Shown: positions 2,130 through 37,539 of the stretch, in pieces
How positions within the stretch are numbered: position 1 is the first letter of the stretch
Layout of the letters: each line of letters opens with the position of its first letter
From: Hemicentrotus pulcherrimus
Taxonomy: Eukaryota > Echinodermata > Echinoidea > Camarodonta > Strongylocentrotidae
DNA length: 37,706 bases
Assembly: GCA_003118195.1 (NCBI GenBank)
Contig: BEXV01001379.1
Coordinates: 6,176 to 43,881 of the forward strand
Reading direction: 5' to 3'
The notes under the pieces: generated by a model
The model's database searches: none
Told to the model about the DNA's origin: nothing
What the model saw: the letters and a program-made list of their open reading frames with translations, nothing else
Made by a program: the position numbers and the translations under genes

Positions 2130-2271
2130 CCACCTGTCAGTGACCTTCCTGGGTGGTCTAATCCCTCCTAGCTAAACTAGTACAGCCCGTGTTTGAACGC
2201 TCAATTGAGACAATAGTAGGGTCCTCGAAAAGAACATCATTGATGCTCATGGGAAATCCTCTTTAAACAAT

Positions 2272-2640
2272 ATAATTATTATTATTGTTGTTATTATTAT
2301 CATTATCATTATTATTATCATTATCAATATCATTATTCATATAATTTTAATTCTCATTATTATTGTTATCATTTTCATTATAATCATTATTATTATCATT
2401 ATCGTTATCAAAATCGTTATCTATATAATTGTAATTATTAGCATTACTATTATTATTCTTATTCTCATTATTTTTTTCATTAGTAGTAGTAGTAGTCGTA
2501 GTAGTAGTAGTAGAAGTAGTAGTAGTAGTAGTAGAAGTAGTAGTAGTAGCAGCACTAGTAGCCGTAGTAGTAGTTGCAGTATTAGTTGTTGTACTATTAT
2601 TATTGTTAATATCATTTTTGTCGTTATTGTTGTTGTCTAG
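2272..2640 (+). repeat. Microsatellite tract (ATT/TTA then TAG trinucleotides)
   Basis: Degenerate ATT/ATC repeats (about 2272-2475) pass into a (TAG)n tract (about 2482-2577) and then into a T-rich stretch that ends at the exon 3 acceptor. The long - strand open frames here, which encode poly-Asn/Thr or poly-Leu, are artefacts of the repeat. Confidence 0.9.
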
Positions 2641-11375: not shown

Positions 11376-11597
11376 ATTATTATTTAAACTGTAATTATCA
11401 CTATTAGTTATGGTTGTTACTATTATCATTATCATTATCATCATCATCGTTATTGTTGGTATTATCCTGCTCACTTTTTTATTTTATGATTATCAATATT
11501 ATGATTATCATCATTATTATTATTACTATTATTATCATCATTATTATGATTATGATTATTGTTATTATAGTCATCATTATCATTATTATTATGTAGG
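11376..11597 (+). repeat. ATT/ATC microsatellite
   Basis: A degenerate tract of tat/att/atc trinucleotides in intron 13. Open frames encoding runs of Ile/Leu or Tyr/His here are products of the repeat and are not genes. Confidence 0.9.
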
Positions 11598-11816: not shown

Positions 11817-12056
11817 TTGACACGACACCACCGACGGTCACATGTCCAACAAGCATCACTCAAATAGTAGAGAGTCCCCAGTCTGCAATGGTCACCTTTG
11901 ACAATGCCACAGCCACTGACCTATCTAACGTGGTCATGTTCATTTCTCAGTCTCGTCAATCCGGGAGCATGTTCACCTTTGGATTTTCAATCGTTACCTT
12001 CACCTTTGAGGATGGTTCTGGCAATAGTGGCTCTTGTGATTTATCAATCACTGTAG
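11817..12056 (+). CDS. Exon 14: HYR domain 13 (Phe-type), exon end copied into the adjacent minisatellite
   Basis: The acceptor is ttcattttacag/ttgaca; 80 codons. Motifs are TPPTVTCP, AMVTFDNATATDLSNV, SRQSGSMFTFG, VTFTFEDGSGN and CDLSITV. The donor is ctgtag/gtgagt. The last 15 exon bases (tatcaatcactgtag, encoding the SITV strand) and the first bases of the intron form the unit of the tandem array that follows immediately. Continuing past this donor reaches a stop at 12104-12106, so this first donor is the only productive one. Confidence 0.9.
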
Positions 12057-13171
12057 GTGAGTACTATCAATCAATGTACGTGAGTACTATCAATCACTGT
12101 GGGTGAGTACTACCAATCACTGTGGGTGAGTACTATCAATCACTGTGGGTGAGTACTTTCAATCACTGTGGGTGAGTACTATCAATCACTGTGGGTGAGT
12201 ACTATCAATCACTGTAGGTGAGTACTATCAATCACTGTAGGTGAGTACTATCAATCACTGTAGGTGAGTACTATCAATCACTGTAGGTGAGTACTATCAA
12301 TCACTGTAGGTGAGTACTATCAATCACTGTAGGTGAGTACTATCAATCACTGTAGGTGAGTACTATCAATCACTGTAGGTGAGTACTATCAATCACTGTA
12401 GGTGAGTACTATCAATCACTGTAGGTGAGTACTATCAATCACTGTAGGTGAGTACTATCAATCACTGTAGGTGAGTACTATCAATCACTGTTGGTGAGTA
12501 CTATCAATCACTGTTGGTGAGTACTATCAATCACTGTAGGTGAGTACTATCAATCACTGTAGGTGAGTACTATCAATCACTGTAGGTGAGTACTATCAAT
12601 CACTGTAGGTGAGTACTATCAATCACTGTAGGTGAGTACTATCAATCACTGTAGGTGAGTACTATCAATCACTGTAGGTGAGTACTATCAATCACTGTAG
12701 GTGAGTACTATCAATCACTGTAGGTGAGTACTATCAATCACTGTAGGTGAGTACTATCAATCACTGTAGGTGAGTACTATCAATCACTGTAGGTGAGTAC
12801 TATCAATCACTGTAGGTGAGTACTATCAATCACTGTAGGTGAGTACTATCAATCACTGTAGGTGAGTACTATCAATCACTGTAGGTGAGTACTATCAATC
12901 ACTGTAGGTGAGTACTATCAATCACTGTAGGTGAGTACTATCAATCACTGTAGGTGAGTACTATCAATCACTGTAGGTGAGTACTATCAATCACTGTAGG
13001 TGAGTACTATCAATCACTGTAGGTGAGTACTATCAATCACTGTAGGTGAGTACTATCAATCACTGTAGGTGAGTACTATCAATCACTGTAGGTGAGTACT
13101 ATCAATCACTGTTGGTGAGTACTATCAATCACCGTAGGTGAGTACTATCAATCACTGTAGATGAGTACTAT
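12057..13171 (+). repeat. 23-bp minisatellite of 48 units, each carrying a splice donor
   Basis: Units start with gtgagtac and end with atcactgtag. Spacing is exactly 23 bp from 12057 to 13138 (checked at several points), giving 48 units to 13160 and a partial 49th that begins atgagt. Units 1-6 end differently (gtac, gtgg), the core is nearly uniform (gtag), and a few units read gttg. Unit 1 is the real exon 14 donor. Sharp edges and a homogenised core suggest expansion by unequal exchange or slippage. Confidence 0.97.
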
Positions 13172-13683
13172 AAAAAGGAAGGCTTAGTGTACGGTGTTTA
13201 CAAAATAATTCGCAAAAAAAAAGACGGAAGTGTACATGAATATAATGTGTAATAATCAACTATTGAAGAAAACAAATACTGAGTAAAATATTGAACAATC
13301 GAATTGTGGATTGATAGTGTTATACGCTGTAATATATTATAAAATGTATTTTTTATAGGCATTTTTTCAATCGGAGCCAATGTTCGATAATATCTCTCAA
13401 TATCAAAATGCAACTATAGCATTTCTCCATGTGTATTTCTCCAAACATTGATTTAAAAACTTTTTATAATGACTATTGGGCATACTATATTGAATATAAA
13501 AACGGTACTGACAGGATTTCTTCAATGATTATGTCTCAATATTTTACCATTTATCTGTAATATTTTCTGCCCTTCTATTGGGTCAGATGAGGCTTTGTTT
13601 ATAATTATATTTACATCTCCTCCTGTGGTTCGGATAGTGGTTTACATGGATCTTGATATAATGCCATTAAATTCATCTCGCAG
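13172..13683 (+). other. Rest of intron 14, nothing further seen
   Basis: AT-rich sequence after the minisatellite, leading to the exon 15 acceptor. A - strand frame at 13198-13413 shows no recognisable domain. Confidence 0.6.
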
Positions 13684-13794
13684 ATACGGACCAGTGTCTG
13701 AGCTCTCCATGTATGAATGGGACCTGCGTGGATAATGTCGACAGTTTTGCTTGCATTTGTGAACCGGGATTCGATGGGCCTATCTGTGACACAG
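13684..13794 (+). CDS. Exon 15: EGF domain
   Basis: The acceptor is attcatctcgcag/atacgg and the donor is acag/gtgcgt; 37 codons. The full six-Cys pattern is seen: DQCLSSPCMNGTC, then FACICEPGFDGPICD. It lacks the C-x-N-x4-F-x-C hydroxylation signature, so calcium binding is uncertain. It sits between the 13th and 14th HYR domains. Confidence 0.93.
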
Positions 13795-14716: not shown

Positions 14717-14779
14717 GTAAGACGGATACTTGAATGAACATTATGAACACCAACTTATGTGGACAGTATCGAGACTATA

Positions 14780-15248
14780 CCCTTTTCTAATTGCACCGAT
14801 TTTCATCGGATGCATCCGGACGCATCCGATGAAAGTGGCAGTTAGAAAGCAACAGAGGAAAAAAAGGCGATTAAATAGCCGTTGAAAAGAAGAGAAATAG
14901 GCCATTAAATTCTCCTGCTCAAGAGCAGAAGATATTCTCATTCTATCGATGTGACACCGATGAAACGTGCAGTTAGAAAAAGTTCGGGAGAAAAAGGCGA
15001 TTAAAACAGCGATTAAAATGGTCAAAGGTCGCAGTATACGCGCGCTTTATCGTAACCAACTGTGTTTGTTGACTTATGGTTGAACATGCTGCATGCTAGC
15101 TAGATGGCATGGGCTCGCCACAGAGAGTGAATTTCACCGGCAGTTAGAAAGCAACAGATAGAAAACTGCGGTTTCACCTTTGTTAACAAAAGGAAAATGC
15201 AATCGGTATTTTCATCGGTGTCACTCCGATAGTGCAGTTAGAAAAGGG
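14780..15248. mobile_element. MITE-like element with terminal inverted repeats
   Basis: The left end cccttttctaattgcac (14780-14796) is the near-perfect inverse of gtgcagttagaaaaggg (15232-15248). Inside, cagttagaaa recurs near 14841, 14972 and 15142, next to gatgaaa/atccgatga motifs that are also inverted. No coding capacity was seen. A clear target-site duplication was not found. The family was not identified. Confidence 0.65.
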
Positions 15249-15993
15249 TTTTAAAACAAATTATCTTCTCATTTTGCCATCCCTTGTTTAATGTAGTGAA
15301 GATTCAAGCCTTTGCCCATGTGTTAAAACTATACTTGCTGTTAAGATTGCTCATATTTCATGATGTTTGTTCACATTTATTTCTTAAGTGTTTTGTTCAT
15401 AGTTTATGGATTAAAGAAATGAAATACTAAAGTAAATGCTATTTTCGATATGAACCGACCTTAACATTTTTACCTCATACTGTCACGACTTCTATATTTT
15501 TTTCTCGTGAAAAAATGACTACATGGTGGATTACGTATTAATGAAAGAGGAAAGCATTAATATTTCAAAGATTTTGGGTAAAATATTTTGAATTATCAAT
15601 AAGTCGCGTTACCAGACCAAAAAAAAGAAAAGAAAAAAAAGAAAGCAAATGGTTTTCCACCAATTCCACTGATCAGTCAGATTATTTTGAACACTTGGAT
15701 TTTAAATTAAATTAAATGGGATACATCACACGAGACAAACAACAACACCTACGATCGACATTACTGGACTCACGGGCTGTCTGAAACATTTTCCGAGGGT
15801 TTGTGAGACTGATAGCCCACGAGATCGACAGCCCAAATACCAACATGTCGGTCTTCCAAGGTTTCTTGACACCGACATTTTGTTTTTATCGTGGGCTCTC
15901 TATCTGATGGGATTTAAGGATGAACCAAAATACTTGAATCAACTTGCCGTAATATCAAATGAGACATTTTCACTACTTTTCTTGTTCATATAG
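15249..15993 (+). other. Rest of intron 16
   Basis: Contains an A/G-rich run (about 15618-15646) and a G/C-richer stretch (about 15740-15910) with gggctgtct and atagcccac words that look like repeat debris. No exon-like block was recognised. Confidence 0.5.
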
Positions 15994-26405: not shown

Positions 26406-26540
26406 GTATGTCCAGTCGTTTTATACGTTTATAATCACTTGAGTAAAAAGGCTGAAATGAGCATCGACAAAAACACGGCAGTAAAAAGTGCAACATGTAC
26501 CATTCTACCTATAAGTTGTAATTTGTATTTTAACTTGTCA

Positions 26541-26576
26541 GATATAACTCTCTTGTCTGATATAACTCTCTTGTCA
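26541..26576 (+). repeat. Two-copy 18-bp tandem repeat
   Basis: gatataactctcttgtct is followed directly by gatataactctcttgtca. It is a small local duplication in intron 30. Confidence 0.9.
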
Positions 26577-37301: not shown

Positions 37302-37370
37302 GTAAGAAATCGCACCCAGAAACATGATTCGTAGTATAAAACCAATATGTCATTATCTGTAATAAACAGA

Positions 37371-37408
37371 AAGATAACGCAGATCTTTAAAGATAACGCA
37401 GATCTTTA
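37371..37408 (+). repeat. Two-copy 19-bp tandem repeat
   Basis: aagataacgcagatcttta occurs twice in direct succession in the intron after exon 46. Confidence 0.92.
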
Positions 37409-37539
37409 AAAAGATGTTCCAGAAAACAAGCATTACCTGGCTATGACAATATTTCATATTCTTATAGCTGAATGATATTAACACGTAATGTGTACAAAAT
37501 TGATCATATCTATTCAATATTCAATAATTCATATTTGGT

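What the first reader, a model, noticed from the sequence alone, without database searches (positions are those of the whole stretch)
12042..13171. A 48-copy tandem array of a splice donor, built from an exon-intron junction
The 23-bp unit consists of the last 15 bases of HYR exon 14 (tatcaatcactgtag) plus the first 8 of the intron (gtgagtac). The array therefore places 48 near-consensus U1 binding sites (tag/gtgagt) every 23 bp at the very start of the intron. Unit 1 is the true donor. Because 23 is not a multiple of 3 and a stop occurs at 12104-12106, every other donor gives a frameshift or a premature stop. Splicing must therefore choose 1 of 48 near-identical donors, or many transcripts are non-productive. 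The array could act as a U1 platform (suppressing early polyadenylation), as a switch for nonsense-mediated decay, or be a neutral expansion tolerated because the first or the strongest donor is used. I know of no described function for such an array.
Basis: partly seen in the sequence, partly recalled or inferred. Interest (0 to 1): 0.88.

Follow-up and report, generated by a model that had tools for sequence, protein, structure and literature searches.

The report
Sea-urchin array of 48 splice donors
In a hyalin-like gene, likely of a sea urchin, the DNA at one exon's end stands 49 times in a row and repeats the "cut here" splice signal 48 times; only the first copy would give an intact protein, a related sequence has a single copy, and the array is likely a recently grown repeat that the cell likely tolerates by using that first copy.

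Summary
In detail: 49 tandem 23-bp units (12042-13168) start across the donor of an HYR exon (11817-12056). 48 keep GT; 39 carry an identical TAG|GTGAGT. 100 shuffles gave no match. The gene is hyalin-like, likely from a sea urchin: twelve phase-1 exons read 956 aa without a stop and match a Lytechinus variegatus protein at 72%, which holds exactly the junction made by donor 1. Joined to the next exon, donor 1 alone of 49 sites gives a stop-free product. New here: a protein from a closer, unnamed relative (P0001) reads through the same junction with one unit and resumes in recognisable intron, so that relative does without the array. The unit's AG is a poor acceptor, against recursive splicing; RNA folding supports no other function. 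Best reading: a minisatellite grown across an exon-intron junction, tolerated because donor 1 is likely used, perhaps at some loss of transcript. Here 23-bp units break the frame and copies are more. No RNA data were available.

The parts
11817..12056 (+). HYR-domain exon (240 nt, phase 1 to phase 1) ending at donor 1
   Evidence: PF02494 E 4.4e-21 for the open frame around it; in a stop-free chain of 12 exons; matches L. variegatus hyalin-like protein
12042..13168 (+). Array of 49 units of 23 bp (15 exon-like bases TATCAATCACTGTAG + 8 intron-like bases GTGAGTAC), 38 exact
12057..12058 (+). Donor 1 (TAG|GTGAGTAC), the only donor of the array whose product has no stop
   Evidence: junction product conserved in P0002
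12065..12087 (+). Unit 2: weakest of the units that keep GT (TAC|GTGAGT, U1 duplex -7.2 against -12.0 kcal/mol); by U1's footprint the one that would clash with donor 1
   Evidence: footprint from a PMC6002489 passage
12088..12202 (+). Units 3-7, all TGG|GTGAGT (weaker by the frequency matrix, 4.5 against 6.2; nearly equal by U1 duplex, -11.8 against -12.0)
12104..12106 (+). Stop in the exon's frame, met if the exon is extended to donor 4 or later; donors 2 and 3 meet a stop in the next exon
12203..13145 (+). Units 8-48; 37 of 41 exact (runs 8-19 and 22-46)
13146..13168 (+). Unit 49, GT changed to AT (no donor)
13169..13683 (+). Rest of the intron; its first part is recognisable in P0001 (...ILNNRIVD)
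13684..13794 (+). Next exon, EGF-like by its cysteines (own reading; never scanned against Pfam in the right frame), phase 1

Best explanation
This is a minisatellite of 49 copies of a 23-bp exon-intron junction in a hyalin-like gene, likely of a sea urchin; it likely grew recently by replication slippage or unequal exchange, and it is likely tolerated because the spliceosome likely uses donor 1 for most transcripts, while use of a later donor would send the transcript to nonsense-mediated decay. Shown: the array, its register on the junction, the single stop-free donor, the donor-1 product in a Lytechinus protein, and a related sequence with one unit. Inferred: donor 1 wins because it alone makes an exon of the usual 240-255 nt, because it is the end site of the array, and because the clashing unit 2 has a damaged donor, units 3-7 being slightly weaker too. 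Later donors are decoys that may cost some output. The mutational mechanism, the age and any phenotype are inferred.
For: Array and register. One stop-free donor of 49 sites. Lytechinus variegatus hyalin-like isoform X2 (P0002), 693 of 960 aligned columns identical, has the donor-1 junction with no array residues. P0001 (104 aa, 1,049-bp contig, source label 'lgn', species unnamed) shares 50 of 56 exon residues with the window, against 42 of 56 for either with Lytechinus; it reads ITV-GEYYQQDC once and then sequence like the window intron: tblastn gives 31 of 70 columns at window 13102-13311, of which 9 fall in an array unit, with ILNNRIVD exact. Exon found once in the assembly. 18 HYR exons for which I had both ends are 240-255 nt. 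Donor 1 ranks 7 of 35 gene donors by a recalled human-like matrix, 15 of 35 by an own-gene matrix, 4 of 35 by U1 duplex energy; the best GT at 11817-12049 and 13172-13679 scores -0.3 against 6.2. Varied edges with a uniform middle, which I recall as usual for minisatellites. Precedent: IFI6.
Against: No RNA, reads or population data. A paper seen in passages says that the intron-proximal of two comparable donors is favoured (PMC6002489); that would favour the last good donor (unit 48) over donor 1. The weak zone may be edge decay plus copying of one change (units 3-7 share it); the chance figure of 1.7e-5 treats units as independent and overstates the case, and units 3-7 differ by only 0.2 kcal/mol in U1 pairing. 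By the own-gene matrix donor 1 is middling (15 of 35), and 38 later units carry the same 9-mer. P0001 is one predicted protein; the single-unit state rests on it, since the mature Lytechinus protein says nothing on intron content. The window's joined flanks have no direct repeat over 4 bp across the junction, and repeats of 3-8 bp occur at the 34 other donors, so slippage at a seed repeat is not shown. At low U1 levels the model gives donor 1 no real advantage (0.04 against 0.03).
Confidence: 0.75

Rival explanations
1. Splicing rheostat: competing donors divert a copy-number-dependent share of transcripts into nonsense-mediated decay, and the array length sets the gene's output.
For: 47 later units keep GT and each gives a premature stop; intron-proximal preference (PMC6002489 passage).
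Against: A related sequence has one unit; conservation of length could not be tested beyond it; the usual HYR exon length favours donor 1.
Confidence: 0.12
2. Recursive or self-cancelling splicing: each intact unit is AG|GT, so splicing from one donor to a later unit's AG removes whole units and rebuilds the same donor.
For: 39 units read TAG|GTGAGT. Fission-yeast genes with a 24-bp AGGT-bearing exonic repeat splice across copies (PMC4974935 passage).
Against: The standard unit's AG scores -3.8: 62nd percentile of 1,896 background AGs, below 23 of 24 gene acceptors scored leave-one-out. Neighbouring units are too close for an intron (general knowledge), though longer jumps are possible.
Confidence: 0.04
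3. U1 platform or enhancer: many U1 sites help define the exon or block early polyadenylation.
For: 39 U1 sites at -12.0 kcal/mol; a nearby array-free intron does carry seven polyadenylation-like signals, so the gene has such signals.
Against: Footprint allows about 24 at most. This intron has 1 polyadenylation-like signal; its array-free neighbours have 0, 0 and 7. Another exon has the stronger CAG|GTGAGTAC and TRF lists no array there. One unit in a related sequence.
Confidence: 0.05
4. Assembly artefact: a short or absent array was inflated in the assembly.
For: No raw reads could be examined; tandem arrays are error-prone.
Against: Variant units fall in ordered blocks with varied edges, not a plain stutter of one sequence; the exon was found once in the assembly. 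Copy number could still be off.
Confidence: 0.04

Closest known systems
Human IFI6 (6-16/G1P3) splice-donor minisatellite (Turri, Cuin and Porter 1995; its title and one summarising sentence seen in PMC4526556; the paper itself not held)
   Same: A minisatellite whose repeat units serve as splice donors
   Different: IFI6 (recalled: 26 repeats of 12 nt from the end of exon 2) keeps the frame and several units are used; here 49 units of 23 bp, frame broken, every later site leads to a stop, use untested, and an unrelated gene in a likely echinoderm
Internal tandem repeats at exon-intron boundaries of human duplicated genes (PMC2812944, passages read)
   Same: Minisatellites at exon-intron boundaries, expanded in one lineage, altering splicing
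   Different: There on average 4 copies of 30 bp, reported to form new introns; here 49 copies at an existing donor
Intron gain by tandem duplication of an AGGT segment (Rogers 1989 model; PMC4974935, passages read)
   Same: Tandem copies of an AG|GT segment; fission-yeast case with a 24-bp unit
   Different: There an exonic segment makes a new intron; here the segment already spans a donor and its AG looks like a weak acceptor
Lytechinus variegatus hyalin-like isoform X2 (P0002)
   Same: Aligns through all twelve exons in order, same donor-1 junction
   Different: Only the mature protein was seen; intron content unknown

Membership tests
Splice-donor minisatellite (IFI6 kind) | Tandem units each resembling the donor consensus | tested here: met
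   48 of 49 units keep GT, 39 identical TAG|GTGAGT
Splice-donor minisatellite (IFI6 kind) | Array begins at the exon's end and runs into the intron | tested here: met
   Unit 1 spans 12056/12057
Splice-donor minisatellite (IFI6 kind) | More than one unit used as donor in mRNA | not testable with these tools
   No RNA data
Splice-donor minisatellite (IFI6 kind) | Alternative donors keep the reading frame (12-nt unit; recalled; a property of IFI6 rather than of the kind) | tested here: not met
   48 of 48 later sites lead to a stop; one of them also lacks GT
AGGT tandem-duplication intron gain | Unit contains AGGT | tested here: met
   39 of 49 units read TAGGTGAGT
AGGT tandem-duplication intron gain | A later copy's AG serves as acceptor | tested here: inconclusive
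   AG score at the 62nd percentile of background, below 23 of 24 gene acceptors; use untested
AGGT tandem-duplication intron gain | A new intron made inside an exon | tested here: not met
   The unit spans a donor; single-unit relative P0001 has recognisable intron after it
Recursive splice site | Strong acceptor directly followed by a donor | tested here: not met
   Donor strong by U1 pairing, acceptor weak
HYR-domain hyalin-like gene | Repeated HYR domains (PF02494), echinoderm homolog | tested here: met
   6 of 10 scanned pieces hit HYR; P0002 72% over 960 columns

The most novel reading that the evidence does not exclude
A frame-lethal donor array acting as a splicing rheostat: the first donor, shielded by a firebreak of damaged units 2-7, competes with some forty decoy donors that feed nonsense-mediated decay, so that unequal exchange in the array changes how much hyalin-like protein the animal makes, an inherited dial on expression by donor copy number.
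Probability: 0.12. Interest if true: 0.8.

Novelty: new variant of a known kind. Interest (0 to 1): 0.47.

Why it matters
It is a natural competition experiment on donor choice: 39 identical donor 9-mers among 49 units in a row, with only the first one giving an intact product. RNA reads from one individual would show whether exon definition, the intron-proximal rule or U1 crowding decides. It would also extend splice-donor minisatellites, known from human IFI6, to an echinoderm and to units that break the frame.

Tried and rejected
Recursive splicing: unit AG weak (in that table the AG itself is not scored, so units without AG also show a number; unit 1's own AG, with exon before it, is at the 87.5th percentile). 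RNA structure: 10 units fold at -65.2 kcal/mol, z -0.44, 60 of 200 shuffles as good. Rfam: 0 matches in the window at gathering score. Seed repeat for slippage: not supported on the joined flanks; P0001's YYQQ would allow TATCAA after the donor in the ancestor, but codon degeneracy leaves this open. Second or allelic copy in the assembly: none found. A second protein search with P0001 found only itself. A genome-wide count of other donor arrays was not obtained: that search did not complete. Papers: nine searches were counted; in the listings I recognised no sea-urchin donor array, but most subscription papers are not held. Passages seen by 'find': PMC4526556, PMC2572611, PMC2812944, PMC4974935, PMC3618361, PMC2915984, PMC6002489, PMC12958757; PMC3618361 and PMC2915984 gave only the Turri reference, PMC2572611 that reference and unrelated text, PMC12958757 nothing to the point. 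Turri 1995, Hodson 2012 and Hicks 2010 are not held. The donor matrix (human-like frequencies) and the 11-nt U1 5' end are recalled, from no call. The 35 donors were picked by me from 42 ORFs; 7 were dropped for want of a clear phase-1 donor scoring above 2, so weak donors are missing and ranks are rough. In one search the two printed continuations into a third exon used a start a few bases off; the stops reported lie before it.

Full report
Observation. The array is as described. TRF reports 12042-13171, period 23, 49.1 copies, 98% matches. Parsed in register there are 49 full units, 38 exact and 11 variant. 48 keep GT; unit 49 reads AT. Donor 9-mers: TAG|GTGAGT in 39, TGG in 5 (units 3-7), TTG in 3 (20, 21, 47), TAC in 1 (unit 2), GT lost in 1. 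A search at up to 3 mismatches gives 49 matches, against 0.00 in 100 shuffles.

Gene. The window lies in a 414-Mb assembly of 4,189 contigs. Of ten pieces scanned, six hit HYR, two fibronectin III (just under the curated cut-off), one sushi and one EGF_CA. Twelve neighbouring exons, which I chained by hand, are all multiples of three and read 956 aa without a stop. The best protein match is Lytechinus variegatus hyalin-like isoform X2 (P0002): 76% in the searched region (574 proteins passed, 120 listed), 693 of 960 aligned columns over the twelve exons. The source is therefore likely a sea urchin (inference).

Which donor is right. Donor 1 joined to the exon at 13684 gives SITVDTDQCLSSPC, and Lytechinus has exactly SITVDTDQCLSSPC. 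Of 49 sites tested with the next exon, donor 1 alone is free of stops; sites 2-49 all meet one (site 49 has no GT either). Eighteen HYR exons with both ends in hand are 240-255 nt, and donor 1 gives 240.

A relative with one unit. The protein search with the exon's open frame returned one protein, P0001 (104 aa, 1,049-bp contig, label 'lgn', no species). It shares 50 of 56 exon residues with the window; either shares 42 of 56 with Lytechinus. It reads through the donor once (ITVGEYYQQDCSVYG...) and then through sequence like the window intron beyond the array, ending in ILNNRIVD (the tblastn stretch has 31 of 70 identical columns, 9 of them in an array unit, and the window frame there carries stops). 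If the contig is a short-read assembly (not shown), skipping of an array by the assembler is unlikely to explain it: the last window unit reads ITVDEYYKK, not ITVGEYYQQ, and the exon differs at 6 of 56 sites. So one unit is enough in a related sequence. Limits: one predicted protein, DNA not available, and a paralog cannot be fully excluded, though the exon was found once in this assembly.

Could the array do something? (a) Recursive splicing: 39 units read AG|GT, but the standard unit's AG scores at the 62nd percentile of 1,896 background AGs and below 23 of 24 gene acceptors. (b) RNA structure: no better than shuffles. (c) Guard against early polyadenylation: one AATAAA/ATTAAA-like site in this intron; 0, 0 and 7 in three array-free neighbours, so no link is seen. 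(d) U1 loading: a published footprint of 23 nt upstream and 12 nt downstream (Sharma et al. 2011 as cited in PMC6002489) forbids U1 on adjacent units. A lattice model with recalled U1 pairing gives about 24 U1 per array at most. Donor 1, as the end site, is fuller than a mid-array unit at middle and high U1 levels (0.84 against 0.40 at one setting) and no different at the lowest (0.04 against 0.03). Among the 47 later units that keep GT, the only one with badly reduced pairing is unit 2 (-7.2 against -12.0 kcal/mol), the one that would clash with donor 1; a consensus unit 2 lowers donor-1 occupancy in the model from 0.84 to 0.62 at that setting. This is suggestive only.

Against donor 1 stands the reported preference for the intron-proximal of two comparable donors (PMC6002489 passage). 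If that rule held here, unit 48 would be favoured and most transcripts lost. Only RNA can decide.

What is known. [quoted passage not shown] 1995, cited in PMC4526556; that paper says that two downstream repeat units serve as donors). The number and length of its repeats (26 of 12 nt) I recall. Tandem repeats at exon-intron boundaries are known in human duplicated genes (27 intron modifications; PMC2812944), and AGGT-bearing tandem copies make introns in the Rogers model, with a 24-bp fission-yeast case (PMC4974935). The present array differs in copy number, in breaking the frame, and in its host.

Verdict. A real, striking array; most likely a young, tolerated minisatellite across an exon-intron junction, a frame-breaking variant of the IFI6 kind. 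How many such arrays exist in this genome was not learned, as the pattern search did not complete.

Noticed in passing
window 29599: Another HYR exon has the donor CAG|GTGAGTAC, with the same first 8 intron bases as the array and stronger pairing (-13.6 kcal/mol); TRF lists no array there.
   Followed up: partly
window 2271-2599 and 11479-11592: AT-rich short-period tracts (TAT/TAG/TTA) between exons of the same gene.
   Followed up: no
window 14717-15993: An array-free intron of the same gene holds seven AATAAA/ATTAAA sites in 1,277 bp, while two neighbours hold none.
   Followed up: no
window 37370-37410 and 26534-26576: Short tandem repeats: 19 bp x 2.2 (AAAGAT...ATCTTT, ends complementary) and 18 bp x 2.4.
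   Followed up: no
proteins P0015 and P0021: Bacterial HYR-repeat proteins (a Flavobacteriales bacterium, a Myxococcaceae bacterium) match this animal gene's HYR repeats.
   Followed up: no
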